Positions 20,801 through 44,843 of a stretch of 64,000 nt of DNA are shown here, piece by piece. The notes beneath the pieces are model-generated. The model did not search any database. It worked only from the letters and a program-made list of their open reading frames with translations, and was not told the DNA's origin. The stretch comes from Prorocentrum cordatum (Eukaryota; Sar; Dinophyceae; Prorocentrales; Prorocentraceae), in assembly GCA_963575745.1 (NCBI GenBank), contig CAUYUJ010007247.1, positions 245,001-309,000 on the forward strand, read 5' to 3'. The number at the start of each line of letters is the position of its first letter. Position 1 is the first letter of the stretch. The position numbers and the translations under genes are program-made.

Positions 20801-21489
20801 TTCAGTGCGTCTTCGAGGGGCAAACTCCGCCTCTCTGTTCAAGCCCAGAACTCAGACGAAGGTCTGATTCATGTCTGTGTGGAACTCTTAATCAAGCCTG
20901 GCCCTCAACGCCAACTCCGGCGCAGGTATGGCTGGAACTCTGCCTAAGACCCACATATGATTGAGGTCTGACTGGGAACTCTAAAGTAAATGTGAATATG
21001 CTTTGGTTTAAACCCGCCGAAACCCATGTCGCGGCGTCGGCCCAGAACGCTGCCAGGTCGGCCCCGCGCGCATGCGTCTTCAAGAACAACGGGAGGAATG
21101 CACAGGCCAAACGGCAGGTCATGGCCGGGGGCCCAGCCGCCAGCTGCCAAAGACTGCGAGCTGGGCCGGGCTGCGCACGCCGCCATGCGGCAACGCTCAA
21201 GCAAAGGCCTGCGCGGGGGGCGCGGGGCAGCGCCCGCCGCCCGAGCGGCCCTGCCCAAAACTGCTCAACGGCAACTGGCGCGAAAAAAAACTCGCCCGAG
21301 GCTCGCTCCTCAACGCTGCCGGCTGTCGCGCCGCGACGGGATGCGCATCGCGGTGGCCGCCCCGATCCCTGGCGCCCGCCCGGGGCAGGTCGGGGGCAGG
21401 GCGCGCGGAGGAGAAGCGCCGCGCTTATCGGATGGCTCGGGGGCGCGGGGCGCGCCCTGGGAGGCGCCTGGAACGAAGGCGCGGGCGCG

Positions 21490-22640
21490 AAGCAAGGCTA
21501 GGAACGATCGCGAGAACGAAGGCGGAGGCGAGGGCAGGAACTGGGGCGGGAACGGGGGCGGGGGCGATGGGCGAGAACGGGGGCGAGAACGAAGGCGAGA
21601 ACGAATGCGAAAATGAGGGCGGGAGCGATAAAGAAGGCGGAGCGAGGGCAGGGGCGAGGGCTAGAACGAGGGCGAGAACGAGGGCGGGAACGAGGGCGGG
21701 AACGAGGGCGGGGGCGAGGGCGGGAACACGGGCGAGATCAAGGGCAGGAGCCAAGGCGGGAACGACGGCGGGAGCGGCGGCGGGGGCGAAGGCGAAATCG
21801 AAGGAGAGAACGAAGGCGAGAACGAGGGCGGGAACGAACTCTGGAACGAGGGCGGCAACGAGGGCGAGAACGAGGGCGGGGACGAAGGCGAGAACGAAGG
21901 CGGGCACGAGGGCGAAAACGAGGGCGGGGGCGAGGGCGAGAACGATGGCGGGGGCGGGAAGGAAGGCGGGGGGCCGCCTACGGGCGCCTCCAGGACCCCC
22001 CCGGGCGCCCCCGGGATTCGCCGGGCGCCCCCGGGGCCCGGGCCTCCAGGAAACCTCCGGGGAACCTCCGGGAGGTCTGTTTGAAGTCTGTTTGGAATCT
22101 GTTCGAGGTATGTTTAAGGTGTGTTTCTGTTTTGGGCTAAACTCTGATTGATTAAGGTATGTTCAAGGTCTGTCTAAGGTCCGTTTGAAATCTAACCGCA
22201 ACTTTGTCTGATTTCCCCGGGCGGGTTCCCCGGGCGGCCTCCGGGCGGCCCCGGAACGAGGGCGGGAACGACGGCAAGCTTGACGAGGGCGGGAACGGTC
22301 GAGGACGGCAGCGAGCGCGAGAACGAAGGCGGGAACGAGGCGGGAACGAAGGCGGGCACGAGGGCGATAACGAGGGCGAGAACGAGGGCGGGAAGGAGGG
22401 CGGGAACGAGGGCGGGGGCGAGGGCGAGAACGACGGCGAGAACGATGGCGAGAACGAGGGCGGGAACGAGGGCGAGAACGAAGGCGGGGGCGACGGCGGG
22501 AACGAGGGCGGAAGCGACGGCGCGAGCGAAGGCGAAAACGAGGGCGGGAACGAAGGTTGGAACGCGGGCGGGAACGACGGTGAGAGCAAGGACGGGGGGC
22601 GGGATCGACGGCGAAGGCGAAAAAGAGGGCCGAAGTGAAA
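21490..22640 (+). repeat. 12-bp minisatellite (GAGGGCGGGAAC-type), two blocks
   Basis: Dozens of 12-base units alternating GAGGGCGGGAAC, GAGGGCGAGAAC and GGGGGCGAGGGC, at about 21495-21965 and about 22255-22615. Because 12 is a multiple of three, three frames on each strand stay open, producing long GREGRERG-type or SFPPSFPP-type ORFs that I do not regard as genes. Between the blocks (about 22075-22200) lies a different AT-richer repeat of AGGTCTGTTTGA-like units. Confidence 0.85.
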
Positions 22641-28839: not shown

Positions 28840-29076
28840 ACTTTAAGGGTAGCTCTTTGGGAGCTGATATATGCAAACGGGAGTATACCCTGCGCGTCGC
28901 TGCCTTATGGCTCAAGGCGCGCGCGCCCTATTTGCCCGGATACCTGACGTGGTATTCGCTATGTGCTGGAAAGACCGATACGTCGATCTTCTCCTATCTT
29001 ACCAATCCACATCCCATATCGTATTCCTTCGACATGGAATTGGATGCAATGTGACCTACCAGGCTCACTTGAGACT
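28840..29076 (+). repeat. 5' LTR
   Basis: Begins ACTTTAAGGGTAGCTC and ends with GAGACT, immediately before the primer-binding site. It is co-linear over its full length with 44607-44843 and has no gaps. The ends are not the canonical TG...CA. A TATATG stretch lies at 28867-28872, but dinoflagellate promoters are not well defined, so no promoter is called. Confidence 0.9.
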
Positions 29077-29090
29077 TGGTAGCGGAGCTG
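29077..29090 (+). promoter_or_regulatory. Primer-binding site for minus-strand synthesis
   Basis: TGGTAGCGGAGCTG follows the 5' LTR directly. Copia elements usually prime from initiator Met tRNA, whose 3' end gives TGGTA at the start of the site. The reverse complement here ends in TACCA, as a tRNA with CCA added should. Which dinoflagellate tRNA it matches needs a tRNA list. Confidence 0.7.
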
Positions 29091-29363
29091 GCCGCGCTCT
29101 CGTGTGGTCAGCTCTTGCTCTCCTCACTCTTACGCTACCGGGCGCGATCCTCGTGACCACCTTCTACCCTGCGCCACCAACATCTACGAGGACTAACCCA
29201 AGAGCAAGAAGCAACACGAGAGGCACGACGTCTAGACAACAACATTGGTACCATATACGCCTCATCACTACGCTATCACCGACCGCTCGGCAACGAGCCG
29301 AAAGCGCAGCACCTGAAGCTCAAGCGGGGAGACCCGCAAGATAATGCGCCTCGCAGGCTTGAC

Positions 29364-30070
29364 ATGGCGCAACCACACAAGCCCCAGCGCGGCAGCGCGC
29401 CCGATAACCACCCATACCTCCACAGCCTGGGTTTGGTTATCTTCGCCATTCTATGGTTCGCGCTGGGCGCGGCAATCGGACACATGCGCCGAGGAGACAA
29501 CGGAACCGATGGGCAAACACATGGCCCCTACTGGGATCCGCAAGGCAACGTGCCCTTTCGCGAGTACGTCTGCGAGGTCAACGCGTGGCTTAACGTCGCG
29601 AGCGGGCGCATGACGCCACAAGCCCAAGCAGCCGCCATCCAACGCGGCCTGGGCGGCCTCGCGAGAACACTCGCCATGAGGGTTCCACCTGACATCATAA
29701 ACTATGGCGCGGACATCGACTGTGTCCACACCGACCCAGTAACATAGATCATGTTCCTCCTGAGCATGAAGTTCGAACGCCTAGAGGATGAGCGCCAACT
29801 CACCTCAGGCACTCAGCTCATCGACTTCCACGTGCCTAACGGAGAGCGAATCGACGTAACCCTTGCGCGGTTCGAAACGGCCCGTCTTGAGGCACAATCG
29901 GTGGGCTTTGACCTTCCCAACTTCCAACTACTTACGACTATCCGATTCCGCGCCGTAGGCGTCGGCAACCAGCGAGCCATGCAACTCTTACAACCACTGA
30001 ACCATCAAATGCCCCGACCACAACAGCAATATGAAGAGCTGTGTGAGAGGATCCGAACGGTCTCATGGTA
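29364..30070 (+). pseudogene. Gag N-terminal region with membrane segment, interrupted by TAG
   Basis: The ATG at 29364 opens a frame that runs to 30070 except for TAG at 29745-29747. Near the N-terminus is a strongly hydrophobic stretch (GLVIFAILWFALGAAIGHM) that would span a membrane, unusual in a copia gag. The body (EYVCEVNAWLNVASG, LTPQ-like MTPQAQAAAIQRGLGGLARTL, then after the stop FLLSMKFERLEDERQ and RFETARLEAQS...) matches the helical capsid-type region found in copia Gag. The TAG stands within a DPVT-stop-IMFLLSMKFE context. The frame then shifts to the next segment. Confidence 0.7.
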
Positions 30071-31968
30071 ATATAGGATCGGTATTTGGAAGTGGAAGGG
30101 GATCTGGCAAAGGAAATTTCGATACTACCCTAGCCTCCGATGCTCAGCCTGGAAACGGGCCCACAAACATATGGGCCGACGATCCTGGTGAATCTACTGC
30201 ACGCCTAGCAGGAGATAGGTCACAACCTAGCTAGGCAACCAGCCCTCCTCCTAGAGAACCTCAGCCTCGCCGCTCTCTCTGGGGAGAAGCGAACCCACTG
30301 AGCGACGGAGTATCCACCTACTTAGGATACGATGACTTTGATTCAGGCACTGACGCCGAAACGATATCGTCAGATGGTGTCGAACCGTTAGGTTGGTCAG
30401 ATATCATGCAAATGGAAAGTGATGGCCAGCGTGCCGAGCATCTGTTTTGGTTATTACAGCAAGCAAAGCGTAGGTGGAAGAGGTCTACACGAAAACCAAT
30501 GCGTCGCGTTAGGATGAGGATCCGGAGGAGCTTCAAAGGCAAAGGCAAAGGCAAACGGGGTCGCCGAAGGTTGAGCGGACGGGGCATCACGACTTTCCTC
30601 CAGAGGCTCTCAGCCGATCAGTATGATGAGATATCTTTCGGGGAAAAGGGTCGTGGAAAAGGCCGCAGGGAAACCCCGGGCAAGGGCAAAGGTAGGCGGG
30701 GAAACCCGCGAGGTAGAGACGGCCAAATCTTGAAGTGCCATGAATGTGATAGCACAGATCATATTGTGAAGGATTGTCCAGTGAAAGGGAACGGAAAGGG
30801 TAGAACGTCCGAAGTTCATTTGGGCTCAAGTGAACCTGCTATTGAGTATCTCAGTCTCCAAGAGATCGAGGCTTTGGAACAGACATTCTTTACGTGGGCC
30901 AGCAACGTGGACACGCTGGACGAGATCGAGGCATACGGCCACGGGCTCTACGCCCTTTACCTCGAGTACCTCCGCCGGTACAACATCGGAGCTATCGAGC
31001 TCACGCCTGTTGAAGGCGGAACGCTGGGAAACCAGCCCCTTTCCTTCCTTGACTGGATGTTCGGCAATCCAGGCAACATCATGGCCTTCGAGGGCAGCGA
31101 CGAGGACCAGATGGAGGCCGACACCGTCGAGGCCACCCCCTCGGAGGTCGAGTATAACCTTCGGCATCAGTCCGACCCCTTGCCTGGAAACGGGCCGACT
31201 CCAGTGTACCAGCCAAACTATCGCGAGTTGATGGGATTTGAGGCCCAGGCTTTCACCGCGGGCGTGCCAGGCAATCCCCATGAGCCGCCTGGCATGCTCG
31301 CGCCGGGTGTGTACGGACCATGCGCGGCGTTACAGACCCTCATGCAGATGCATGCCGCTCAAGCTGAAGAGTATCCAGACAGTCAGCAAAATGTCGAAAG
31401 CGGCCAAATGATGCTGCAGGACTCAGACGTTTGTGACGACGCGGACTTGCTGACGGCTGCCTTCTCTCTCATCGACAGTGTGCTCCCCGACGATGTACAG
31501 CGGCACCTATGGTACGCAAAGGGGCGCTGGCGCCAAGCCCTTCAGCGGGCCATCACCACGCGCGAACAGGCGCCTCCTCCGCCTGGATGGGGTCTCCAGG
31601 CGGCGGGGTATCACCCCGGCCATGCGGCTATGCGAAACATCATCGGGCAGCCCTCCTACAACTATGCTCAGCTCGAGACGCACGCCGAGCTCGGTAACGA
31701 GCCTGGTCCGACCATCATACCACCAACGCCGGGGCAGCCCAGCGGTGCACAGACGCCACCACAGCAGGGAAACCTGCCTGTCCCGAATGGGCAAATGACT
31801 CATCATTGGCAATCCGACCTCAGAAGCCGAAGATGGGGACGGCTGCGGACTGCGCGAGGACGAGACCACCATCCTCATGGCGAACATCGACGGCGAAGAC
31901 GAGGAGGTGGACTTCGACGGAGACGAGACCTACGCACAACCACCCGCACACGACTTCGCCATGACTGA
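30031..31968 (+). pseudogene. Gag C-terminal region with zinc knuckle
   Basis: One frame, broken only by TAG at 30232-30234. It holds an acidic YDDFDSGTDAETISSDG stretch, a Lys/Gly-rich KGKGKGKRGRRR region and a CCHC zinc knuckle CHECDSTDHIVKDC (30736-30777, C-X2-C-X4-H-X4-C), the RNA-binding hallmark of Gag. Beyond the knuckle are 390 residues of acidic and Pro/Gln-rich linker with several GNRA hairpins embedded. The end (after about 31830) is frameshifted into Arg-rich noise while the next frame (31877) takes over. Confidence 0.75.
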
Positions 31969-32755
31969 CCCTTACCAACAGGGAGACCTGCCTGCCCAGG
32001 ATGCGCCGCCCACACCTGCCCAGGACACGACGCCAACTCCTGCGCAGGCCACGTCAGCAACATCATCAGCAGACGACCGGGCCAGGAGGTCTCGCTCACA
32101 CACGCGTCCCAGAGACGATCAGCACCCCCAAGGACGACTCCCGCGTGAATATCGGCAGGCAGCTCCATCAGAGCACGCTGCCCGACGCGGGGGTCAGCTG
32201 CTAGCCTAGAACGATCCCAGGCGCAGAACGGGCGAACACTCTGCCTTTGGACAGGGCAATCCGATCTACAGGGGCGCCCAGGGCAGGTCTATACGGGGCG
32301 GATATCAGGTCGCTGCGAACATTCGACGTCCTGATAAAGAGGCAGTGCGGAGAGAGCTGAGAGCCGTCATCGATGAGCGCCGCCGCTACAGGCCTAACGC
32401 GGCCTGCGGCCCGTGCTCTCAGGATTTCCAGGAACACCGACCTGGCTGCCCTGTCGGCCTCAGCGACGTCCTGAGCCCTAACAGAGGCCGTACTCCTGCA
32501 AAGGAGGGTCATCCACCTCTTGTGCCCATGACTCAGGAGGAGATCAACGTGGTCAACAGCCGTCTCGAGGCCAGGCGCCTCAACGATCCTCCTTCCCAGA
32601 GGACTCGCTCGCCGCGGGGAAACCCGGCTGGTGTTTCCAGCCAGGCCCGCACTTACGAAATGACGAGCGACGACGAGCAGGAGGTCCAACGAGCCGCAGC
32701 AGAGGCAGAACGCAAGCGGTTGGCGGAACAACGCAGCCGCGAGGCAACTCGCTGA
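31877..32755 (+). pseudogene. Polyprotein linker region
   Basis: Acidic ANIDGEDEEVDFDGDETY, then a TPAQ repeat (PPTPAQDTTPTPAQAT), a stop at 32207-32209 and a second open part 32345-32755 in the same frame, containing a Cys/His cluster CGPCSQDFQEHRPGC and ending in a charged helix. The TGA at 32753-32755 is followed in frame by the KptA-bearing ORF. No catalytic domain is seen. Confidence 0.5.
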
Positions 32756-34774
32756 ATGCTGCAGGAGTCGCAAGCCGAAGCAAGGAAGCCACCGACGACC
32801 CCAAAAGCTTCGGACAGCGAGACTCGTGAATATAGGACGCCCTCAGGCGAAAGGCAGAATAGCCCCTCTACCCGATCCGAGGAGCGCGGCTTCAATGTGC
32901 AGATGGGAAGGCCCCTCACAGAGGTGCCGATGGCAACAGCCCGGGCAAGCCCTGCACATAGATCTGACCCCAGGCAACAACCTCAGGACTCCCTGGAGAT
33001 CCACAGGCGTCAGCCGAGCCGGAGCGGCTCCATCGCCAGCAAGGCCAAGGCGTTTGAGCGTACAGGGTATGCCCCTAAGCCTGCAGCGCCAGTGGCGACG
33101 CGCTCCAAGGAGTCCGAGGAGGGCGCTATGCCTCGGGGCCACTGGGTGCCTACTATCAGGAGCAGTGCTGGCCAAGAGGCGTCGCGGGGAAACCCGCCGG
33201 GCGCTGCGGCCGCAGCGTCTTCATCATCAGGAGCCGCAGCCTCGTCAGCAGCAGCGGCTCCAGCAGCAGCGACAGCAGCCCAAACAGTAGAAGAGCTGCG
33301 CCAACCAGGTGACACCTCATTCACGAGCGGAAGCCAGGAGCTGACTAGCGATCGGCGTGCACTACGGAAACTTCCACCTATCCGTTCGGTCGACGGGGCG
33401 TTCATGACGAGCTGCCGAAAGAGGAACATCATTCCCAACACCAACTACAAGCTCAAGCAGCTCAGCAAGTGCATCTGCAAGCACGCGCCGGACAAGCCGT
33501 ACAACCCAGGTTGGAATTTGAAGACGTTCGGCGACCACGACGGCTGGATCAACCTCCGCGAACTCGTGCACGACTTCCCATGGAGCGACGGCAATCGGCA
33601 CGACGGGTACTTCCCGAGGTCCGATGAGGCCAAGATCATCGCCGATACCTTTTACGGGAGGGAGGGCGACCAGATGGCTGCAATCATGATGGCGATCGTC
33701 CACGTCCGTGAGTCCGACGGAGAGGAAAAGCAGCGGTTGCAGTTCAAGGTCTTGGTGCGAGATTTGGGCATGGCCGATCTGCTCATCCGTGCTTCGCAGG
33801 GGCACTCGTGGAAGCTCCAAGCACCTTCGTCGTTGTACAAGTACATCGTACTGTGTGACAACCCAGCTGGGAGACCGGCCCCGTACCCTGATGTTGCTGT
33901 TCACGGTGCAAGGTGGGCGGCCTTCGAAGGCACCATGTGGGTCGGCCTCTCCTGCCGCAGGGAGCACAACACCAAGAAGAAAGGAACTGGGCGATCACAT
34001 ATCCACTTTGTTCCGACACTTCAACGTCGCGACGTTCAGAGCGGATGGGTTCCTGAGTCCGAGATTCTCGTCTCGATCGACTGGCACCAGGCCCTGAAAG
34101 ACAAAATCGAGTTCTGCTGGTCCGACAACGGTGTGTTGCTGTCTGAAGGGGTCAGTGGCATTATTGAGCCCTCCCATATCAACTATGTGGAGGAGATCGC
34201 CACAGGCAAGCAGTGGCGTAACCCGCACTACTTAGGCAACCACCGTGCACGCTGTACGCCAGCCGAACTGAATGCGCCTGACAAGTGGAGGCCAGTGGGC
34301 AACGCGAGCATTGGGTACAGGATGTCTTTCTGGCGTGACGACGAGCCCCCATCGGCGTGCTGCCAGAGAGAGTTAGGAGACCACTACAACCCAACTTACG
34401 CTGCCGAGAACCAGCCCGAGACTCACCAGGTCTTCATGATCAACGATAGTACGGCGGGGAGTGCGGCTCTCAGTCAACCGCCAAGCCGCGCTCCGAGTCA
34501 AGGACCCAGCGCCATATCCTGGCAAGTCCTCAGTAACTCAGATGTTGATCAGATTGCGGCTGCTCTGAGCCCCGAGCAGGTGGAACAGTCAGCGGACAGA
34601 CTCTATCAACAAGACCCCTGGGCTGCAGGTCAGGAAGCTATGTCCGCGATGGTGACTTGCCCGAGCCGCAGGGAGACCCGCAAACATCTGGCCGCGACAC
34701 CTTCGGAGAGCCAACTCGATTCGAGCAGATGCCAGAGAGCCCCTCGCACAGCGTGCACACGCCGAGGGGCATGA
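32756..34774 (+). CDS. Polyprotein segment with KptA/Tpt1-like RNA 2'-phosphotransferase domain
   Basis: Residues about 200-475 (33355-34185) follow the KptA/Tpt1 family in order. They are LSKCICKHAPDK (family LSK-x-LSYxLRH), then WNLKTFGDHDGWINLRELV, then IRASQGHSW (family IRAxQGHS), then HGARWAAFEGTMWVGLSCRREH (HGT...I...GL), then GRSHIHFVP (R-x-HIHF) and DNGVLLSEGVSG (NGVWLT). Known members use NAD+ to remove a 2'-phosphate from RNA, as at tRNA splice junctions. The Arg of the catalytic Arg-His pair is Lys here (CKH); the other two family arginines appear kept. The domain has about 70 residues more than bacterial KptA, mostly in the middle. The flanks are disordered and carry GNRA hairpins. 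After residue about 625 the frame drifts and 34657 onward reads better in another frame. Confidence 0.7.
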   Translation: MLQESQAEARKPPTTPKASDSETREYRTPSGERQNSPSTRSEERGFNVQMGRPLTEVPMATARASPAHRSDPRQQPQDSLEIHRRQPSRSGSIASKAKAFERTGYAPKPAAPVATRSKESEEGAMPRGHWVPTIRSSAGQEASRGNPPGAAAAASSSSGAAASSAAAAPAAATAAQTVEELRQPGDTSFTSGSQELTSDRRALRKLPPIRSVDGAFMTSCRKRNIIPNTNYKLKQLSKCICKHAPDKPYNPGWNLKTFGDHDGWINLRELVHDFPWSDGNRHDGYFPRSDEAKIIADTFYGREGDQMAAIMMAIVHVRESDGEEKQRLQFKVLVRDLGMADLLIRASQGHSWKLQAPSSLYKYIVLCDNPAGRPAPYPDVAVHGARWAAFEGTMWVGLSCRREHNTKKKGTGRSHIHFVPTLQRRDVQSGWVPESEILVSIDWHQALKDKIEFCWSDNGVLLSEGVSGIIEPSHINYVEEIATGKQWRNPHYLGNHRARCTPAELNAPDKWRPVGNASIGYRMSFWRDDEPPSACCQRELGDHYNPTYAAENQPETHQVFMINDSTAGSAALSQPPSRAPSQGPSAISWQVLSNSDVDQIAAALSPEQVEQSADRLYQQDPWAAGQEAMSAMVTCPSRRETRKHLAATPSESQLDSSRCQRAPRTACTRRGA

Positions 34775-35300
34775 CGCCGGCAGTGTCGACGCCGGTGCAA
34801 TCCCCATTTGGGACACCCGGGCGTCCTGCTCCGAGCGGCACCCTTATGGAGCGGATCGCTGCGGCCAGAGCTGGACAGGGCGCAGCTCTTCTGGGCATGA
34901 TGCCACCAGGCACGCCATCAACTTCGCAGGGGGACCTGCCTGGCACTCCGTTGCAGCACCGACCGCTGATCGACCAGAACATTCTTACAGGGGTGCCAGA
35001 CGATTACCGCACACGGGTGGCGGCCGCGGTGCAGCAGGTGCAGAGCCACAACTTGCCTCGCCCAAGCGGTCCGAGGTGGAGGCCGGCCTGGTCTTGGGAG
35101 CCCGAGGGTCCGAAACCGCTCGACCCTGCTCGGCAACGAGCCTTCATCCCGGCTTTCAATGCCCATCCGAGCATGGCCCAAGGCCAGAGGCCACCAGCCG
35201 CGACCATGGATCCGCCACTGTATCCAGACGGTTCCAGGGTCCCGAACAGGTTTGCGCGTGAAGCAGCGGACCAATTTCATCGCCTCACCAAACGCGTTGC
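34657..35300 (+). pseudogene. Polyprotein linker after the KptA-like domain
   Basis: Pro/Gly/Gln-rich sequence (TPRGMTPAVSTPVQSPFGTPG and similar), then PSGPRWRPAWSWEPEGPK and a stretch ending near REAADQFHRL. Four GNRA-type hairpins lie within or just before it. No domain is visible. The frame is lost near 35300 and the next ORF is in another frame. Confidence 0.45.
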
Positions 35301-35312
35301 AGTGATCCGTCT

Positions 35313-35900
35313 ATGTACCCTCATATGTCATGTATGCCTGCACCGACGATGCCAGACGCGGTTGTCCAACCCACAGCCCATTCGATATCATCGGGCAGCA
35401 GGGGAGTGCCAGACTACATCAGGCAGACACACCACACCAAACAGGCGTGTTTCAGACGCCGGCAGGCGGTGCATAGCGTACGTGATCAAGCACGCGCAGC
35501 AGCCCTTGAGGTACTGAAGGGCAAGGGCAAGGGCTCATCCACGCGAGGAGACTCGCCAGCTGCGTCGCCCGCAGCCTCCACAGTGGCAGCCGCCCCAGCA
35601 GCGGTTGCCCCAGCGCCGGAGGCTCAGCCACCCGCTGGGGATCCTCCAGCTGCCTTCCTGGACGCCGAGACGGTCTTGGAACGGCAACGGCGGGTGTATC
35701 CCAGGGCGGCGGACGTGGAGGTCTACACCGGGATGGAAGACACCTGCGCGGTATGTCTCGAGGAATTCATGCCGAGGGAGAACATGTACCGCATGCGGTG
35801 CAACCATCTATTCCACGAGGAATGCTGGAACGCAGACGCGGTGGGCCATGTCAAACCAGCGAGACGGTGATCCCCAACAGCCAGTGTGCGCCATCTGCCG
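35313..35900 (+). pseudogene. RING-H2 finger region of the polyprotein
   Basis: Cys/His ligands follow the C3H2C3 RING pattern: CAVC (35745-35756), 14 residues, CNHLFHEEC (35799-35825), then about 20 residues and CAIC (35887-35898). A one-base frameshift between 35830 and 35885 separates the last pair from the first six ligands, so in this copy the finger is broken. RING-H2 domains usually act as ubiquitin E3 ligases, with a Trp after the last Cys of the H2 half, present here (ECW). An upstream KGKGKGS stretch and Ala/Pro linker precede it. A RING finger in a copia polyprotein is unusual. Confidence 0.7.
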
Positions 35901-37702
35901 GGCACCAGGTATCATAGCGCCGTCGTTCCAATGGGCCGGCTCCGTCACGCAGGCTCCTGAACAAGCGGCGAGGGAGCTGCGGGAGCTGAGGAGCATGGTG
36001 GAAACAATGGCGGCCAGAATGCTGGACACGCAGGCGGAACAGCTCCAGCAGCGGGGAAACCCGCCGGAGGAGGTGCGTGCGCCGATGGAGACGGGGCACT
36101 TCGACCAGCTCATCCCGACGCCGGCGCCGCAGCAGGGCAACCTGCCAAACGCGCCACCTTCGCCGGCCCCTCCAACTCACTACGAGCCTGGGATCGGACA
36201 AGTGGCTCCTCCGATGTCTCCCCAAGGCGGGGGCGGGCCCGAGCTGCCGCTGGATCCTGACCAGCTACGGCAGCAGCGGGCTCGCCACTTCCAAGCCCAG
36301 ATGGAGAACGCACACACTACCTTCATGCTGGACGCAGACAACCCTGAAAGCGAAACATTCGACATCTCAGACTCGTCAGTAGCGACGTCGGTAGTGGCGG
36401 CCCGGGCCGACGAACTCTCAGCCACGAACAACGAGTTCGACGAGAGGTTGCAGTACCGGGATCACGTCATGAATGAGGGATTGCAAGACATTACTCTGCA
36501 ATCATACCTGACGGTGACGCGCCGTACCACTCAGGACCAATACACTAGCATACGTGACGAGTATGCGAACTGGCGGGAAGAACAGGGCATCAACGCCCAG
36601 GACGTGTCATATTTCCAATATATCGATCTGGCACGAATGGCCACAGGAAGGCAGAGTGCCAGAGCGTTGCGGGGAAACCCGCCAGGAGTCACGTCCCAGA
36701 CGCGGCGAAACCCGCCAGATGTAGCAAACGGCGCAACAGAGACGGTGCACGTCAAGCAGCCTAGCAGAACATTTCTCGAGGACGGCGGCAACACGATCCT
36801 CATAGATGCGGGCTCGAAGATCAACATGATGGGGGAAAACACGAGCCGCAAATTTGTTCAGGCTGCTGAGGCACATAATCGTCCCTGTACGTTTGAGCCC
36901 CGTTCGTTGCTGAACATAAACGGGGTAGGCGATGGGGCCGGCCCCATCTGATACCGCGGGCACCTTCAGCATTGCCTGCGAGCACCAGGGCTCGACCCAG
37001 ATCGACTCGTACAAGACCAATGCCGTGTCGGGTTGCGGCAAGGACCTGCGGGCTATCCTGGGTCTCGACAGCATGCAAGACAAGCGCGCTATTATTGTGC
37101 TTGAGCGAGGCCAGGAGAAGCTGATCTTCCCTGGGAAGGGGCAGGTCAAGATGGAACTCCCCGAGGGCTCCAAGATCATGCCTACAACCAAGCTGCCATC
37201 AGGCCATCTGTCAATCAGGTGTGATCGATTTAGGGCCGCGGGGCAACCCGCCTCAAATACGAGTACGACGTCGTTCCAGACGGTGCTGACGGGCGAGCTG
37301 TCTCCCGCACAAGAGCGCCAACAGGTGCAGGGAGACCTGCCTCAGGGCCTCCTCGCAGTCCTCGCCAAGGCGACGATGAGAGGCGACAGCGTCGACGATC
37401 TGGAGACGTTCGATTGCTTCGTAGCCAGGGCACTGGCCCAGCATGGCGGAGGTGCTGCACCGATGGATGCGTTGAGGACACGCAGGAAGATAGTGATGGG
37501 GTACGCGCGTCGCGAGCTGCAGACGGTCAACGACGCGAGGTCGAAGGGCATCCTGAAGCAGCCAATGGACAACCCGGCTATGCTGGCCACGTTTGCGGAG
37601 CAATCCGCCTCTGAGGCTACCGCGCGCTGTCATGCAGAGCTTCAGCGTCTGCGAGAAGCTCAGATGCTGGCGAGCGCGACAAGCGCCTCTTCCTCATCGT
37701 GA
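35899..37702 (+). pseudogene. Linker and aspartic protease (retropepsin-like)
   Basis: From 35899 the frame carries coiled-coil-like and Pro/Gln-rich linker. The protease begins with NTILIDAGSKINMMG, in which Asp-Ala-Gly (36805-36813) stands where retropepsins have Asp-Thr/Ser-Gly. The flap-like NINGVGDGA ends the first frame at 36951. The rest (AGTFSIACEHQGS..., AILGLDSMQDKRAIIVL, EKLIFPG) is in a second frame starting at 36932, so a one-base shift in the GGGGCCGGCCCC run breaks the enzyme. C-terminal to it is a 150-residue helical region ending at 37702. Confidence 0.65.
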
Positions 37703-38343
37703 AGAGGGCAAGGCGACGCTATCCCCGCGTCGCAGCCGAGAGGCCAGGGGCTCACAAGGACAGCGGGGCAACCTGCCATAAAAAGAAAGCTTTCGTCATC
37801 GAAGATACAAGAGAAGCTTGCGCTGACCTCCGCGCCCGAGGATATACCTGTGACCGAATCTCCCACAACGAGCTCAGGACAGCTGTGGGCACAGAGTATT
37901 TGGAGGCGGTAATTAGCGGGGACTACGCTCTAATCTGGGCCAGCGCTCCAGGGGACTGGTACGTAAGGACCCCAAGTAAAAGAGAAGCCCCACACTGGTC
38001 ACGTATTCAGAACCTTCTGACGAAAGCACGAAAGCTCCGGATGGTGATTATAGTGTTTGGACCTCCGGGATACGTTTGGAAGTTATATCCAGTACGTGAC
38101 ACTCTAGAAGATCTTAAGCTGGCTGTAGTGCGGATTCGGTTGTGTCATGTCGGTATTCGGTTCAATATGCAGGACAACGCGCCAAGTGGTACATATATGC
38201 AGGTAGCCACATCAATACCGATTAGCTCCAAGTTATGGGCATGTACGTGCAAACAGACGATACCACAACATGTTTCGGATTAGTACGGCCAACTGGTACG
38301 ACATGCCGAATGGAGAGCACAGACACGCATCACGCTCATTCGC
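37699..38343 (+). pseudogene. Methyltransferase-like segment 1
   Basis: After a short charged start, YALIWASAPGDWYVR..., MVIIVFGPPGYVWKLY, and RIRLCHVGIRFN...GTYMQVATS lead to W-x-C-x-C-K at the end. The alternation of hydrophobic strands with a PP motif and the closing Cys/His patch resemble the second half of retroelement-borne SAM-methyltransferase-like domains. There is no intact SAM-binding motif I in this segment, so it would need the segment at 39.0 kb or be inactive. Assignment is tentative. Confidence 0.35.
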
Positions 38344-39043
38344 CACCTTAATGATCGGATCCTGGGGAAGGGAAACACTATGCACGGAAACGTGCCGGTA
38401 TACCTAGGCACATACACACGTACGGACCATACTATACATCACTATGTGACGACCAAGCGAGGAAGACCCAAATGGTCTGATGTTATCCGACGTGTGACGA
38501 TCAACCTGAATACTAACACAATTATCCAGGATATCGCAGTAGCCGATCAACCGACGGGATATGATTAGCATGCACCATTACCCGAAGGGGTTGCGAACAT
38601 CAGCACACGCTTGCACTGGCAGCCCGAGGAACCGGTCATGCTCGGCAGCGAGCCTGCTCAATCACCACAGAAAACTAGACGCGTCATCATAGAAGATGAC
38701 TGTCCTTCCCCCCTCCCGACTCTGGCGATTGTTGCAGGTACCCGCTCATCAATGACGATGGGCACGCAGACCGGTGAACGCGACGAGCAAGTTCTAACGT
38801 ATCAAACAGAAGGAAAGGCTTAAAGCCGAAAAGGAAGCAGGCATCAAGCCTCGACGCATCAAAAAGCACGTCGAAGATGGAAACGACGATTGCGGTGATG
38901 ACTTGTCAGGACTCGGACAGGGCCTTATGGCGACCTGAAGCACTGACGTCCCTGTCGAGCTGATCAGCTCTGACGAGGAAGATGACCTGTTCCTTACCCT
39001 CCCCACATCTCTGCCCGACACACGCGCCGATGTATATAGTATA
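38344..39043 (+). pseudogene. Polyprotein linker between methyltransferase-like segments
   Basis: Two short readable pieces, HGNVPVYLGTYTRTDHT... (38380-38568) and HWQPEEPVMLGSEP... (38611-38823), separated by stops and in different frames. Two hairpins (38382-38395 and the GCAG-loop relative at 38640-38653) sit at the beginning of each. No domain is seen. Confidence 0.4.
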
Positions 39044-39690
39044 GTGGCTACTCTATGCTATGGCAACAACAATTGCGTGGACATGTTGGAACTGTGTGGA
39101 GGTGAGGGTGGCATTCCAAATCTTGCCTTCTCAAGAGTCCTCTCCTCAGGCGGAAATCTAAACAAGACCACGTGCGTCGACCTGGGAGATCCCTCGGTGC
39201 AGCGAGCTGTAGACCATTACTTTGCAGTGTGCTACGTGCGGGTTGCCATTCTACAGCCGAACTGCCGCACCACAGGACCACCATCCTACTACAACTACCA
39301 AAGCCAACTACAACAATTGGAAACAACACCACAAGGAAGACTTGCCACACATAACCTACTGTGGGAAAATAGCTGTAACACAGGACAACGCACGGAGGTG
39401 GTTTATACGCGAGCAACCCACAGGAACATGGGTGGATCAGATCCCTCCATAGAAAGAACTTGCCGACCGATCCCACATTACAACTGCACGCATCGACCAA
39501 TGTGCGACGGGACTCAAGGATACGGCTGGTGACTATATAAAGAAGCCGACGGATATCACCAGCAATGACGAGGCAATTCTTAAACCCTTTGAGCGGCTCA
39601 GGTGCAACGGCCAACACATACATGCACAGCCGTGCAATGAGGAGCTTTCACTAGCACAACAATATACTCGACGACTGCAGTCCGCCTTTG
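39044..39690 (+). pseudogene. Methyltransferase-like segment 2
   Basis: VDMLELCGGEGGIPNLAFSRV looks like a SAM-binding motif I (hydrophobic strand, then Gly-rich loop), though the listed run is trimmed here to its core GGEGG. CVDLGDPSVQRAV and VAILQPNCRTTGPPSYYN follow. In a second frame come HITYCGKIAVTQDNARRWF, the TAG at 39450-39452, and then YIKKPTDITSNDEAILKPF with a Cys-x-Gly-x-His-x-His ending, like the KPT...TN...C-x-H-x-H tail of cytosine-methyltransferase-like domains. One frameshift and one stop inactivate it. The position between protease and integrase is unusual for copia. Confidence 0.45.
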
Positions 39691-40429
39691 TGGAAGCCGT
39701 CTACCCGGCGAAACCCATTGACGACGCGCGCGGAAACGCGCCTGCACGAACCGCTCATGCTGATCCTGCCGACCTCCCCGATCAAGCTGAACCGGGAGAC
39801 GGTATGAAACGCCTTGGTGCCCGTGTCATCCCAGAAGTAGCCGCGTGCCCAGCATGCTTCGACAACGTCCGCAAGGACAGCCCTAGCCACAACAGGGATC
39901 CTACACAGTGTAAAACGACACCATCTCTGTATATTGGCCATGTCCTGCATGCCAGAGGGACCTCACGAGAAGCAATGGTGTTAAGAACCACCTCGACACC
40001 GAGCCCGGCAAATTCCGCTTTGCCGAGCCGTTCAAACTCCCACATGACCATGACCGAGAGGGACGCACTGTGCCAGCTTGGTGGAACCCCTTGCCCAAGC
40101 CGGGTGAGGGTCAAGCCTCGGCATCGGGCGGCCGTCAGGGCGCCCGCGCCAGGCCACCAGGACCACGCGCCCCTGGGAATACCGATCCCACATCAGGTGC
40201 GAGCAGATATGATATACTGCGAGACGCGCCCGAGCGTGAAACACGCCTACCGCGTCTTCGAGCTGAAACACGCTTTCCGCGTCTTCGAGCGAACCGCCGC
40301 AGGTAGCGGCCCGCCGTGGCCGCTTACAAGGTGCACCTTCACCACCAGATGCAGTTGACGAAGGAGACCGACTGCGGAGAGCCACGAGGGACCCTCTTGC
40401 CTCGACCGGCTCGGGGGCCCCACGACTGC

Positions 40430-41475
40430 CTGACTGGACGAGGTTTGATATCCAACACAGTCTGCAAAACCTCCGTAGTTATGAGCCTCATGTAGTCAAG
40501 AGGGGACTCCGCAAACTGCACCTACGGTGGTATCATGCGAAGGAACCCAAGATGAGGCTGATCCTGGAGAAGGTGGGCTTGGACAATGTTCGACTAAATA
40601 TGATTAGAGAAGTCTGCGACACTTGTCGGGGATGTAGAGCTTGGGGGCGCCCAGGTGACTCCACGTTACCTTTAGTGAGCCTCCCTGGAAATTGGCTCGA
40701 CGAAGGCGAAATAGATCATGTTTTAGAAGAACGGATCATATTCCATATTCTGGACCGATGTATTCGCCTGGCAGCAGGCCAAGAAGTCCCCAACAAAGAG
40801 CGCGGGACTATACTCAACGCCTACCACTACTGCTGGATCGCCTATCATGGACCCTTCAAAATATTGTTTTCGGACGGAGAAGGTGCCCTCAACAACGAAA
40901 CTGCCATGGCCACGATGGCGAATGAGGGTGCAACACTGCGTATCCGAGCGCCTGGCCAACGCGCGACCTCGATTGAGCCGCGCAACGGCATCCTCAGAAG
41001 CACTCTCCACATGATTGAGGAAGAGCTGAACAGACACAACATCCCCATTGTATTTACCAGAGTACTAGCAGAAGGCATCTTCGTCACTAACGCTTTCACG
41101 TTCTACAACGGAGTATCGCCGTACCAAGCACACACTGGGCGACAGCCCTCTTTCCTTCCTGACCTCGACCCCCTTGACTTTCCCAAGGGCCCCGAGACGT
41201 CAGGCCACGAACGCGAGCGTCGCGTGAGAGAAGTTAGCCCGGATGCAAGAACTCAAGCCACGGCGGTAGCGAAGACGAACCGCGCCCTCGAAGCCAAGAC
41301 GGCGCCGGATGGTGCTCGCCTATACTCTGCTGGGGGCCTGGTCGACTATCACCGACCCACGGCTACTACGGACGATCATGGAGGCTGGAACGGCCCGTTC
41401 CCTGTGACCCGTAACGTGCCCGAACGTGGACACGTAGTCGTCAAGGCAGGATCGCGTGAGGTGCTTGCAACGTAG
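40430..41475 (+). CDS. Integrase (HHCC zinc domain and DDE core)
   Basis: In frame from about 40430 (LPDWTRFDIQHSLQNL). The N-terminal zinc domain has His at 40519 and 40534 and Cys at 40615 and 40624 (LHLRWYHAKE ... CDTCRGCR). The catalytic triad candidates are Asp 40714 (GEIDHV), Asp 40873 (FSDGEG) and Glu 40975 (TSIEPRNGILR), with 33 residues between the last two, near the usual 35. The region after the first Asp (IIFHILDRCIRL) fits the retroviral integrase core. It joins the two ends of the cDNA to target DNA. The frame ends with TAG at 41475. This is the best preserved enzyme of the element. Confidence 0.85.
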
Positions 41476-41529
41476 CCCGATGCTCGCCACACGCTATATA
41501 TTGAATGCCTTCTCACCAGGGAACTTGGC

Positions 41530-42309
41530 ATGGATAACATGGCCATGCTGACCGCCCTCGCGTACGTGGCACACCTCGGTGCAGGGGAACCTGCCAAAGT
41601 GTTCGGCTATATCCCAGACTACAAGGGAAACCTCAACCTCTCCGACGACAGCAAGTTTCACCCGCGCGTGCACCTGGCACTACACTATCTCGTGCGAAAC
41701 GATTTCAGTGTTGAGCGCGTAGTAGCTGTGAGGTTGGCCAAGAGCGTGCTCAACCTACCTTCAGTGAAGTACGCCACAGGGTCTACACTGATCCACTACG
41801 ACAACGATGTCAACCCAGCCTTCCACTACTACGAGTGCGTAGGCACCGGCTTGAACATCTCCCAAATCACTGGTAGCACTCACTCCAGACTCATCCAGTG
41901 CCTGACGTCAGAAGCTCCTTCCCTAGGATTCCACGACGACCTGGTCCAATATCAACACTTGGACACAACGTCTGAAATACCTGACCAGCCTGGAGACAGG
42001 CCTGCTCCAGACACCCCAGGTGCTTCATCACCAAGTGAAGGTCGCCTGTCCACAATCTACGAGGAAAGCGAGGAACACGACATCGAGGCCATGATGATGG
42101 AGGAATGGTATGATGAGCTGCGTATGGACCTTCATCCCATGACGGTGACCGACGAATGTCTCTACCGCGTCCCAACAACTATGCTGCCCGACCAATGTGT
42201 CTTGGTCCCAGCATCAGTGGACGAGGAAGATACTTCTGCATCGGAGACGCTCGGCGACGAGCCTGAACAACAAGCTCTGCTTTGTCTTGTTATGCTCGAC
42301 CGCACCTGA
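41530..42309 (+). CDS. Integrase C-terminal extension / linker to RT
   Basis: 260 codons without a stop, starting MDNMAMLTALAYVAHLGAG. It has a mixed alpha/beta look up to ITGSTHSRLIQCLTSE, then an acidic linker (IYEESEEHDIEAMMMEE). Three GNRA-type hairpins (41581, 41988, 42249) lie in it. It has no known catalytic motif and lies where copia elements have the variable spacer between integrase and RT. Confidence 0.6.
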   Translation: MDNMAMLTALAYVAHLGAGEPAKVFGYIPDYKGNLNLSDDSKFHPRVHLALHYLVRNDFSVERVVAVRLAKSVLNLPSVKYATGSTLIHYDNDVNPAFHYYECVGTGLNISQITGSTHSRLIQCLTSEAPSLGFHDDLVQYQHLDTTSEIPDQPGDRPAPDTPGASSPSEGRLSTIYEESEEHDIEAMMMEEWYDELRMDLHPMTVTDECLYRVPTTMLPDQCVLVPASVDEEDTSASETLGDEPEQQALLCLVMLDRT

Positions 42310-43370
42310 CGAGGATTACTCTCTTGACAGTGGCGAATATGGCACATGCGCCGAATTGTGCTTCACGCCAGAAATGGCAAAGGTCGTGCTGGATCAGGCC
42401 CACCAACTTGCACAGCTCGAACCAAGTATGGTCGCAACGATGGGAGTATACGTATCATCGGCTGCTAAAGGTGCTGTAGTAGTTAAGGAAGATGACCTAC
42501 TCACCAAAGCCGACATAGCAGCACGCCCCAAAGAGGTCAGTGAAGCCTTGCACACCGAACTCAGGATCTGGCTCGACAACCAATGTTTTGAGATGTACGA
42601 TTTATCAAAAGCTTCCAACATTCTGACGCCAAGATACGCAAACAAATGTAAATTTGTGAAGGTGGGGACCGAGAATGTCACAACAATCCGTCTCAGACTT
42701 GTCCTCCGTGGATCTATGGACACGGAAGCTTTCGATGAGGAAACCTTCTCGGGAACTGCTCGCCGACAGTCCCAGAGGCGCCTGGCAAATAAAGCGGCGC
42801 GTCGTCCAGAGTGGATCTTAGCATCTATGGGCATTGACAAAACGTTCCTCAAAAGGCCTGACATATGAGGAACTTGCTCGCGCCACCGGCGAGGACACTC
42901 GCATGGTTTGCTTCGCACTTCCACCAGGAAGTGCCCAGGTGCTTCGCACCCTTCTGGGCTTCTCCTCTTATGATGAAAGCCGACATTGCCTTAGGTGCCT
43001 GAAGCCAGGAACCGGTACGAAAGACGCCCCAAGAGCGTTCCCTCTCAAGCTTCGCGCGACCGCTCGAGCTATAGGCCTTGCGCCGACCAGTTACGATCCT
43101 CAATTCGAATTCAGCCAGGATCTGTTAACAGCAAAACACGTCGACGACATTAATATGACAGGCTTGGAGAAAAACGTATATGATTACGTACAACGTGTTG
43201 AAAAGGTGTTCGGCAAATGCAAGCTCAACAAACACTCTTTTACTAACTGTGCCGTCCGCTACACGAAAAGACGAAAAAGGGGATGTGATCATGGACCAAA
43301 ACGAGTACATCAAACAACTACGTCCTATCACACATCCCGAACTTACAGGCGCAGCGGCCGAAGCTAAGGC
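42300..43370 (+). pseudogene. Reverse transcriptase, copia type (RVT_2)
   Basis: Frame one (to 42868) has ELRIWLDNQCFEMYDLSKAS, the copia motif IRLRLVLRGSMD, GTARRQSQRRLA and motif A in GIDKTFL. A one-base shift near 42840 moves to the frame with HCLRCLKPGTGTKDAPRAF and motif C KHVDDINMTG (VDD at 43140-43148; His replaces the usual Tyr of YVDD). A further shift near 43260 leads to the connection region (DVIMDQNEYIKQLRPI). The motif order is that of copia RT. The copy cannot make a continuous enzyme. Confidence 0.85.
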
Positions 43371-44200
43371 TACCAAGCTCATTACCGACATGTTCGTTGG
43401 CCTGCGAGGAGCCCTCACCTATGCGCTCTTCGCTCAGGTCTGGCTCATGGTGTACGTGGTGTCTCTCCAGAAAGAAGATCTAAGAGCCTACCAACCTACA
43501 AGTCAGGCGACTGAATGCTGCGACGCGAAAGATGATCAGCAACCCGAAACGCATCACCTTCCCTCGGATGAAGCCGACTGATGAAATAGACATACATAGT
43601 GACTCGGGGTATCGGAAACTCACCGGGGAGGAGGGCAATGAGACCAAGGGCTACGGCATTCGTGGGGCTAACGTACTAGGGCGAGGAAACTCGCCCCAAG
43701 GCAAATCCGTCGTTCACCTTTGCGACGGTCTATGCAAGTCACACCGACTGCAGGTGAGGCCCAGGTACGCCGCTGAGGCACTCGCAGCTGCGCACATCCT
43801 TGATGAGTGCTATCCCACGCTCATCACCCTCCACAAGCTCAGGGCTGGGGCACGCACTCCACGACAACTACGGGATATGCGTGAAGTTGGAGGCCTAGCT
43901 ATCGAAGTATCTCTCACGATTGACGCCGAGTCTGTATACAAGTCCCTATCTAGCAAAGACCTCAATATACCGACAGAACGCACACTGCTAGGACATATCA
44001 GTTGGATACGTGAGCTCATGGATATAGGTATAGTGCATAAAGTACAGTGGTGTGACACTAGGGACATGACCGCAGATGGGCACACAAAGGGGAGTATCGA
44101 TCGGGAGCTGCTTTTGGAAGTGATGTCAGGTACTCAGTCGTTTAAGTATGACGTGAAGCAGTTTGTTCCCTTCGGGGCCCTGAAGACGAAACAATGCTGA
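43370..44200 (+). pseudogene. RNase H, copia type
   Basis: The N-terminal part lies at the end of the 43180 frame and the rest in the frame 43532-44200. Motifs are IDIHSDSGY (first acidic residue), a Glu in RYAAEALAAAH, VSLTIDAESVYKSL, and WCDTRDMTADGHTKGSIDRELL. The last corresponds to the W-x-x-T-x-x-MxADxLTK signature of copia RNase H. It removes the RNA template after minus-strand synthesis. It ends at 44200, 407 bases before the 3' LTR. A seven-bp GNRA hairpin (43679-43696) sits inside the coding region. Confidence 0.8.
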
Positions 44201-44606
44201 AGCCGAATCGTTTCTACTCTGTCCTTGTTGCCTCTGCGGTCCAACTTGCCAGCGCGGGCGCCTATTGTAGGCGCTCCCCAGCACGCTCGGAAACGAGCCA
44301 TGCAATTTTCACGCTTGACAGAGAGCCTTCCCAATTCTGTCTAGGCTCCTTGCCCTAATACCTCTTGCCCGGAGGGGAATAGCCTGTTTGGCTAACCTTC
44401 AGCCGGGCCGATAGCCTTTGGCCATTTCAGGGGCTGTCTCTGCAAACGCGTGGGAAACCTTTGCGAGGTAACTCGCCAGCGAATGGAATCGCCCTTCAGT
44501 CTGGTGGTAAACTAGACTGCGAGTACTGTTTTTCCGTTCGAGCTGTCGCGCGATTGCTGAGAGCCTAGCGACTGCGCGGCTTTACTCTCCGTCTCCTCCC
44601 CTCCCG
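44201..44606 (+). other. 3' untranslated region of the copia element
   Basis: No coding. It contains two GNRA hairpins (44285-44298 and 44463-44476). Immediately before the 3' LTR, where a purine-rich tract should prime plus-strand synthesis, the plus strand is instead almost pure pyrimidine (44581-44605, TTTACTCTCCGTCTCCTCCC followed by CTCCC). Confidence 0.6.
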
Positions 44607-44843
44607 ACTTTAAGGGTAGCTCTTTGGGGGCTGATATATGTAAACGGGAGTATAGACTGCGCGTCGCTGCCTTATGGCTCAAAGCACGCGCGCCCTATTT
44701 CCCCAGATACCTGACGTGGTATTCGCTATGTGCTGGAAAGACCGATACATCGATCTCCTCCTATCTTACCCATCCACATCCCATATCGTATTCCTTCGAC
44801 ATGGAATTGGGTGCAACGTGACCTACCAGGCTCGCTTTAGACT
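44607..44843 (+). repeat. 3' LTR
   Basis: Full-length partner of the 5' LTR, same 237-bp length, starting ACTTTAAGGG and ending TTTAGACT. About 15 substitutions and no indels separate the two copies, so they diverged after insertion. Confidence 0.9.

What the first reader, a model, noticed from the sequence alone, without database searches (positions are those of the whole stretch)
29285..44476. A family of about 29 GNRA-tetraloop hairpins spread through one retrotransposon
Seen directly: 29 inverted repeats of the form GCNNG-GNRA-CNNGC on the sense strand of the copia element, from 208 bases after the 5' LTR to 131 bases before the 3' LTR. At least eight different stem sequences keep pairing by compensatory change, while the loop is always GNRA and the closing pair always G-C. 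With equal base frequencies the exact 14-mer pattern is expected about once per 2.1 million positions, so about 0.01 in 16 kb. GNRA loops are known for stability and for docking with RNA receptors and proteins. Most copies fall in linkers and read x-G-N/D-x-P, but others lie in another frame or in untranslated DNA, so the constraint seems to be on nucleic acid. They could be packaging or RT-guiding structures in the genomic RNA, protein-binding tags, or a tiny self-spreading hairpin element. I know of no description of this.
Basis: partly seen in the sequence, partly recalled or inferred. Interest (0 to 1): 0.92.

Follow-up and report, generated by a model that had tools for sequence, protein, structure and literature searches.

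The report
Repeated RNA hairpins marking one retrotransposon
A family of very large jumping genes in a microbial eukaryote carries dozens of copies of one small RNA hairpin along its whole length, and evolution has preserved their base pairing while the letters changed, which suggests that the element's own RNA is tagged for recognition.

Summary
Inside the LTR element at 28840-44843 there are 24 perfect GCNNG-GNRA-CNNGC hairpins, all on the sense strand, plus 17 with one violation; 300 shuffles average 0.02 perfect, and the rest of the window has none. The whole genome was searchable. Pairing, not sequence, is enriched: GCTCGGNRACGAGC occurs 6025 times (control 848), the same arms mismatched (GCTCGGNRACCTGC) 678 times (control 636). 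Of 100 listed places, 89 form 17 one-strand clusters spaced like the window element's, some with sites missing. Orthologous sites mostly keep the hairpin at 75-92% identity, also in 3' non-coding DNA, with compensatory changes at five sites. A sister lineage at about 65% identity has its own set with a different loop, GNCA. These are selected sense-strand RNA hairpins, about one per 400 nt. The best mechanism is dispersed recognition sites for the element's own RNA-binding protein (packaging). That step is inferred; no binding data exist. Self-spreading explains at most local duplications.

The parts
28840..29076 (+). 5' LTR, 237 bp, followed by a tRNA-iMet-like primer site TGGTAGCGGAGCTGG at 29077 (label recalled)
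   Evidence: same letters follow the LTR of the sister element
44607..44843 (+). 3' LTR; 15 of 237 positions differ from the 5' LTR; flanking 5-mers ACCGC/ACCAC (4 of 5 alike)
29285..29298 (+). hairpin GCTCG-GCAA-CGAGC
   Evidence: same in copy C78
29324..29337 (+). hairpin GCGGG-GAGA-CCCGC
   Evidence: C78 has GCGGG-GAAA-CCCGC
30696..30709 (+). hairpin GCGGG-GAAA-CCCGC
31023..31036 (+). hairpin GCTGG-GAAA-CCAGC; in copies C2, C130, C78 GCTCG-GAAA-CGAGC
31689..31702 (+). hairpin GCTCG-GTAA-CGAGC; absent in copies C2 and C130
31764..31777 (+). hairpin GCAGG-GAAA-CCTGC; same in C2 and C130
32739..32752 (+). hairpin GCGAG-GCAA-CTCGC
33184..33197 (+). hairpin GCGGG-GAAA-CCCGC
34926..34939 (+). hairpin GCAGG-GGGA-CCTGC
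35128..35141 (+). hairpin GCTCG-GCAA-CGAGC (one arm changed in C14528)
35543..35556 (+). hairpin GCGAG-GAGA-CTCGC
36051..36064 (+). hairpin GCGGG-GAAA-CCCGC; copy C14528 has GCAGG-GAAA-CCTGC
36132..36145 (+). hairpin GCAGG-GCAA-CCTGC
36669..36682 (+). hairpin GCGGG-GAAA-CCCGC
36702..36715 (+). decayed hairpin GCGGC-GAAA-CCCGC; perfect in copy C16611
37238..37251 (+). hairpin GCGGG-GCAA-CCCGC (reads AGQPA)
37327..37340 (+). hairpin GCAGG-GAGA-CCTGC
37595..37608 (+). hairpin GCGGA-GCAA-TCCGC (A-T closing pair)
38382..38395 (+). hairpin GCACG-GAAA-CGTGC
38640..38653 (+). hairpin GCTCG-GCAG-CGAGC (loop last base changed); fourth of the six GCTCG sites
39728..39741 (+). hairpin GCGCG-GAAA-CGCGC
41581..41594 (+). 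hairpin GCAGG-GGAA-CCTGC; sister element GCGGG-GAAA-CCCGC
41988..42001 (+). hairpin GCCTG-GAGA-CAGGC
42249..42262 (+). hairpin GCTCG-GCGA-CGAGC
43681..43694 (+). hairpin GCGAG-GAAA-CTCGC; sister element GCGTG-GCCA-CACGC
44285..44298 (+). hairpin GCTCG-GAAA-CGAGC after the last long open frame; copy C571 has GTTCG-GAAA-CGAAC
44463..44476 (+). hairpin GCGAG-GTAA-CTCGC after the last long open frame
30406..31968 (+). Gag-like open frame with a CCHC zinc knuckle (below the Pfam cut-off); candidate hairpin-binding protein
32756..34774 (+). open frame with a Tpt1/KptA RNA 2'-phosphotransferase domain
   Evidence: E 9.5e-18; also in the sister element
42834..43364 (+). part of a copia-type reverse transcriptase (frame broken on either side)
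   Evidence: some homologues carry PF07727; sister element RVT_2 E 2.5e-11

Best explanation
The hairpins are RNA recognition elements in the sense (genomic and messenger) RNA of a 16-kb copia-type LTR retrotransposon. Shown: they are real, on the sense strand only in the window element, at shared sites across the copies sampled, kept paired by compensatory change, held in 3' non-coding DNA as well as in coding DNA (all three reading frames in the sister element), and the two lineages compared have different loop rules (GNRA in the window's family, GNCA in the sister family). Inferred: a protein made by the element, most likely the Gag/nucleocapsid with its zinc knuckle, binds the G-loop on a short G-C-ended stem. 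Some 30-40 such sites, about one per 400 nt, would let the element's RNA be chosen and condensed into its own particles, as dispersed packaging signals do in several RNA viruses. The lineage-specific loop would give each element preference for its own RNA. In coding stretches the hairpins sit where the encoded x-G-N/D-y-P or A-G-x-P-A is tolerated as a linker.
For: 24 perfect hairpins against 0.02 expected, none on the other strand. 26 distinct sites: 97.7% of cells paired against 77.2% after shuffling; covariation score 0.503 against 0.092, 0 of 500 shuffles reaching it; all four Watson-Crick types at pairs 3 and 4. Genome-wide, the paired form counts 6025 (control 848) and the mismatched-arm form 678 (control 636); the same stem with a GNCA loop counts 636 (control 470). 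89 of the 100 places listed fall in 17 single-strand clusters spaced like the window element's: 10 hold six sites (7 with its spacing, 3 with the second site shifted), 7 hold fewer. Orthologous compensatory changes at five sites: 31023, 36051, 41581, 43681, 44285. Stems 66 of 70 and 49 of 50 identical where the background is 75.1% and 80.5%, while the free loop base is 4 of 7 and 4 of 5. Non-coding hairpin 44285: pairwise identity 0.960 against 0.836 in the flanks. A neighbouring site keeps a U-G pair in 18 of 20 copies, which favours RNA over DNA. In the sister element all 19 AGxPA peptides of one frame use GCG GGG NCA, 18 followed by CCC, although GCG, GGG and CCC are 26%, 17% and 15% of their codons elsewhere in that frame. 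A zinc knuckle in both elements, each below the Pfam cut-off.
Against: No binding, packaging or expression data. Folding of 314-nt contexts gives 16 of the 24 a probability of at least 0.8 at the middle pair, but 8 of 24 lie at or below 0.50, four of them at or below 0.14. In one search two of the five measures do not discriminate: pairs with a change on both sides (2 against a shuffled 2.0) and, less so, further pair types (9 against 6.8, 20 of 500 shuffles). At 43681 conservation over the flanks is slight among the 21 rows (0.943 against 0.920). Known retroviral packaging centres on the 5' leader rather than on dozens of dispersed sites (recalled). The partner could equally be a host protein, the RT, or the element's Tpt1 or RING protein. 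Only two lineages were compared.
Confidence: 0.5

Rival explanations
1. The hairpins serve the RNA in another way: bound by a host or element protein for stability, nuclear export, translation on a 16-kb multi-frame RNA, or as pause or template-switch points for reverse transcription.
For: All structural evidence for a selected sense-strand RNA hairpin applies equally. The element also codes a Tpt1/KptA RNA-end-processing domain and a RING finger.
Against: The strict loop rule and its difference between the two lineages (GNRA and GNCA) point to recognition by a co-evolving partner rather than to mere stability. I saw nothing tying the sites to frame boundaries, but did not test it.
Confidence: 0.33
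2. A tiny self-spreading hairpin: copies of a 14-15-nt palindrome are inserted or copied into new places of the element and tolerated in linkers.
For: The sister element has nearly uniform GCGGG stems (25 of 34) and duplicated modules of about 45-57 nt with two hairpins; presence/absence at the 31689 site, where C2 and C130 are about 33 nt shorter.
Against: One orientation in the window element (in the sister element 38 paired sites on the sense strand and 4 on the other); loop position 2 is free while the rest is fixed, which plain copying would not give; sites shared by copies 8-25% diverged; just after 43681 the sister element has a second, near-perfect hairpin without any length change; coordinated changes of both arms.
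Confidence: 0.1
3. Protein-level motif (x-G-N/D-y-P or A-G-x-P-A linkers, for example protease sites) whose codons happen to be self-complementary.
For: 17 of 24 perfect hairpins read x-G-N/D-y in the longest frame (my tally); 19 AGxPA in one frame of the sister element.
Against: Two hairpins lie after the last long open frame and are conserved there; other frames are used; wobble positions are fixed to the pairing codons; paired arms are about 9 times as common as mismatched arms.
Confidence: 0.02
4. A DNA-level element: single-stranded DNA hairpins during reverse transcription, bound by integrase or another factor, or palindromes produced by quasi-palindrome correction.
For: G-N-N-A loops also stabilise DNA hairpins (recalled); stems are perfect in most copies sampled.
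Against: A conserved U-G pair in 18 of 20 copies and sense-strand loop orientation fit RNA better; mutational correction does not specify loops or GC ends.
Confidence: 0.05

Closest known systems
Dispersed packaging signals of RNA viruses (MS2 and others)
   Same: Many stem-loops along one genomic RNA sharing a short recognition motif; passages of PMC6281560 seen.
   Different: Here in an LTR retrotransposon, with perfect 5-bp stems, GC ends and about 40 sites; no protein partner has been shown.
Retroviral leader packaging hairpins with tetraloops bound by NC zinc knuckles
   Same: Zinc-knuckle protein plus tetraloop hairpins; passages of PMC7599994 seen.
   Different: Those lie in the 5' leader and are few (recalled); these run from leader to 3' UTR.
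Ty1/copia (Pseudoviridae) LTR retrotransposons
   Same: LTRs, primer site, zinc knuckle, RVT_2 reverse transcriptase (in the sister element).
   Different: 16 kb, with Tpt1/KptA and RING domains, and the hairpin set.
Rickettsia palindromic elements and similar in-frame coding palindromes
   Same: Palindromes tolerated inside coding frames (recalled; search listing only).
   Different: Those are about ten times longer (recalled) and insert into host genes; here 14 nt, essentially one orientation, shared sites and a loop rule.

Membership tests
Ty1/copia LTR retrotransposon | paired LTRs | tested here: met
   237 bp, 222 of 237 identical; sister element 289 bp at 98.96%
Ty1/copia LTR retrotransposon | short target-site duplication | tested here: inconclusive
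   ACCGC and ACCAC, 4 of 5 alike
Ty1/copia LTR retrotransposon | copia-type reverse transcriptase (RVT_2) | tested here: met
   sister element PF07727 E 2.5e-11; window RT piece hits proteins some of which carry PF07727; no Pfam hit on the window's own broken pieces
Ty1/copia LTR retrotransposon | integrase upstream of RT | tested here: inconclusive
   No Pfam integrase hit; order read by eye only
Dispersed packaging signals | multiple stem-loops with a shared loop motif on the genomic (sense) strand | tested here: met
   24 perfect on +, 0 on -
Dispersed packaging signals | selection on the structure | tested here: met
   covariation and site conservation
Dispersed packaging signals | binding by the coat/Gag protein and effect on assembly | not testable with these tools
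   needs experiment
Self-spreading palindromic element | clean insertions at new sites, both orientations | tested here: not met
   one orientation in the window element and within each of 17 clusters; same sites in the related copies sampled; one presence/absence site with a longer length change; local module duplication. Only some sites could be compared.

The most novel reading that the evidence does not exclude
Each lineage of these giant retrotransposons writes its own hairpin code (stem plus loop class, GNRA or GNCA) about every 400 nt along its RNA, co-evolving with its own RNA-binding protein, so that elements sharing one cell keep their RNAs apart: an RNA identity tag that is selected inside protein-coding sequence.
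Probability: 0.35. Interest if true: 0.93.

Novelty: new variant of a known kind. Interest (0 to 1): 0.83.

Why it matters
Dispersed packaging signals have been hard to prove because the motifs are loose (recalled). Here natural evolution gives an unusually clean case: dozens of hairpins per RNA, many genomic copies (2852 and 8046 first-look candidates), compensatory changes in coding and non-coding DNA, and two lineages with different loop rules. It makes the questions of how many sites an RNA needs to be recognised, and how cis-preference evolves, directly testable. The same elements carry a Tpt1 RNA-repair domain, which is unusual in itself to my knowledge.

Tried and rejected
Protein-motif explanation, DNA palindrome and self-spreading element: see rivals. 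Rfam over the window: no family reached its gathering score. ARAGORN: no tRNA. IMG/VR scans with two pieces gave nothing useful: the RT piece gave two loci by a 30-residue match, with one paired hairpin between them and no set; the Tpt1 frame gave none. Protein search with the Tpt1 frame: no hit, perhaps because of the length limits. Protein homologues at the 43681 site: some keep R-G-N/H-A/S/T, compatible with pairing, and others have no such motif; 120 proteins were taken, my expressions found an anchor in 70, and many of those anchors are off-site, so I do not count it as evidence. A search for a third lineage with P0092 listed 150 places at 58-60% identity to the query, which look like the sister family (open frames of about 2199 aa recur, and several listed contigs are those), so no third lineage was reached. 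The count of GCGGGGNCACCCGC did not complete. Paper search on retrotransposon, tetraloop and copia failed three times. A tblastn of the sister element's frames against these, the window's flanks and other loci found no further relative.
Full report
What was checked. The window lies at contig C7247:245001-309000 of an unnamed 4.13-Gb genome in 21,875 contigs. The large size and a GC of 62% in the window would fit a dinoflagellate such as Prorocentrum cordatum, listed with 59.7% GC and 4,750 Mb in PMC11453091 (passages seen), but I did not test the host; many protein relatives of the RT and RNase H pieces carry the EukProt label Pyramimonas_sp.AAC. The element spans 28840-44843: LTRs of 237 bp with 15 differences, near-duplicate flanking 5-mers, a CCHC zinc knuckle below the Pfam cut-off and a Tpt1/KptA domain, a RING finger and reverse-transcriptase pieces. 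Frames are broken by stops and shifts, so this copy is old; I read nothing through.

The hairpins. In the element 31 places match GCNNGGNRACNNGC on the sense strand and 24 are fully paired; no paired one is on the other strand. Shuffles give 0.02 on average. Among the 31 the two free pairs match 24 times against 4.4 by permutation, with all four Watson-Crick types at both positions; counted on 26 distinct sequences the covariation score is 0.503 against 0.092, reached by 0 of 500 shuffles, while two other measures of that tool do not discriminate or do so weakly (2 pairs against 2.0; 9 further types against 6.8, reached by 20 of 500). These 31 were chosen by the outer letters and loop, so only the two inner pairs are a fair test. 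For the looser form GCNNNGNNANNNGC, 27 of 45 places in the element are paired on the sense strand and 0 of 5 on the other; in the rest of the window 1 of 48 and 0 of 44, and in 20 other stretches of 200 kb 13 of 139 and 10 of 127, 12 of those stretches having been picked for a place listed. Allowing one violation of the strict form adds 17 places; the rest of the window gives 13 over both strands of 48 kb, so about 2 would be background in 16 kb (my arithmetic). With 6.3% LTR divergence, about 3% per copy since insertion, about 65% of sets of 13 constrained bases should still be intact, or 27 of 41; 24 are. So the imperfect ones look like neutral decay after insertion (my arithmetic).

Genome-wide. 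GCTCGGNRACGAGC occurs 6025 times (2955 + 3070) against 848 for the reversed pattern, which is itself a paired stem with another loop. The same 5' arm with the 3' arm of another hairpin, GCTCGGNRACCTGC, occurs 678 times against 636. The GCTCG stem with a GNCA loop occurs 636 times against 470 (half as many loops as GNRA). The loose pattern without regard to pairing counts 225,229 against 149,592. Of the first 100 places, 89 lie in 17 clusters and 11 stand alone. Each cluster is on one strand. Ten clusters hold six places: seven with the window element's spacing of about 2400, 3450, 3500, 3600 and 2030, three with the second site at 1749 instead. Seven hold two to five places with compatible spacing, one of them with the 1749 form. 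Only one stem type was surveyed in this way.

Orthologous sites. A DNA search with 41476-44606 scored 40 of 2852 candidates and reported 43 matches, the window itself among them and the others at 80-92% identity. I fetched short pieces of 20 of these copies. Perfect stems: site 44285 in 19 of 21 rows, 43681 in 18 of 21, 41581 in 17 of 21, and 44463 in 16 of 19, where two of the 21 rows were set aside for gaps, one of them wholly gapped (rows include the window). After the last long open frame, pairwise identity is 0.960 at 44285 and 0.916 at 44463 against 0.836 in the flanks; at 43681 it is 0.943 against 0.920, a weak contrast in conserved coding DNA; at 41581 it is 0.940 against 0.865. That script's row for a further site was misplaced; one search corrects it: 18 of 20 copies carry GCTTGGCARCGAGC, a hairpin with a U-G pair, which the window copy has lost. 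In two more divergent copies, all seven sites between 34926 and 36715 in C14528 and all five that the piece covers in C16611 carry the hairpin with at most one violation; stems are 66/70 and 49/50 identical against 75.1% and 80.5% elsewhere.

Compensation. Site 31023: GCTGG-GAAA-CCAGC in the window copy, C15 and C26; GCTCG-GAAA-CGAGC in C2, C130 and C78; decayed in C336. Site 36051: GCGGG/CCCGC in the window copy and C16611, GCAGG/CCTGC in C14528. Site 44285: GCTCG/CGAGC in most, GTTCG/CGAAC in C571. Against the sister element: site 43681 GCGAG/CTCGC to GCGTG/CACGC in a context with 92 of 134 columns identical, and site 41581 GCAGG/CCTGC to GCGGG/CCCGC with only 71 of 134. Most other sites could not be aligned with confidence between the two lineages. 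Site 31689 has no hairpin in C2 and C130, which are shorter there. So there are sites with and without it.

Sister lineage. At C1:2045383-2061818 an element with 98.96% identical LTRs, about 65% identical to the window's where they align, has 38 paired GCNNN-GNNA-NNNGC sites of 57 on its sense strand and 4 of 11 on the other. Its loops are mostly GNCA (31 of 38), with position 2 free; only 4 fit the strict window pattern. All 19 A-G-x-P-A peptides of its 2306-residue frame use GCG GGG NCA, and 18 then CCC, so the nucleotides are held, not only the peptide; all three phases occur over its frames. This lineage is abundant and young: a pattern at the 43681 site matched 669 places (control 15), and about 90 of the 100 listed are letter for letter alike; a protein search listed 150 places with frames up to 2226 residues open. 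Some hairpin pairs there sit in duplicated modules of about 45-57 nt, so local copying contributes.

Reading. Structure, orientation, site conservation, compensation, the free loop base and the U-G pair together show selection on a sense-strand RNA hairpin. The lineage-specific loop suggests a co-evolving binding partner. An element-coded zinc-knuckle protein acting on dispersed recognition or packaging sites is my best mechanism (0.5); it rests on analogy with RNA viruses (PMC6281560, passages) and retroviral NC (PMC7599994, passages). Against it: local folding gives 8 of 24 hairpins a probability at or below 0.50 at the middle pair, and nothing measured binding.

Novelty. Searches for dinoflagellate/retrotransposon/hairpin, GNRA tetraloop/retrotransposon/packaging, dispersed packaging signals, GNRA/retrovirus/packaging and LTR retrotransposon/compensatory/stem-loops listed no paper that describes such a set, as far as titles and abstract starts show; I saw passages of three papers only. 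The library lacks most subscription journals and one planned search failed, so absence from print is not shown.

Noticed in passing
window 32756-34774; L012:2895-9812: A Tpt1/KptA RNA 2'-phosphotransferase domain is carried by both retrotransposon lineages; such a domain in an LTR element is unusual to my knowledge and could relate to RNA repair or to ADP-ribosyl transfer.
   Followed up: partly
window 35262-35867; L012:2895-9812: A RING finger domain is coded in both lineages.
   Followed up: no
window 44540-44606: The tract just before the 3' LTR is C/T-rich rather than purine-rich, unlike a usual polypurine tract.
   Followed up: no
window 29285-44298: The six GCTCG-type hairpins are placed about 2.4, 3.4, 3.5, 3.6 and 2.0 kb apart, nearly even in the middle; clusters elsewhere repeat this, some with sites missing.
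   Followed up: partly
L012, L013 (C1:2045383-2061818): An abundant, young sister family with long open frames; hundreds of places match at one site.
   Followed up: partly
window 21489-22616: Arrays of a 12-nt GGGCGAGAACGA-like repeat.
   Followed up: no
window 52755-59650: About 31 copies of a 129-nt-spaced tandem repeat in blocks (43 codons if translated).
   Followed up: no
The nearest protein relatives include many entries labelled Pyramimonas_sp.AAC in EukProt at up to 88% identity, which suggests close kinship, transfer or contamination of that data set.
   Followed up: no
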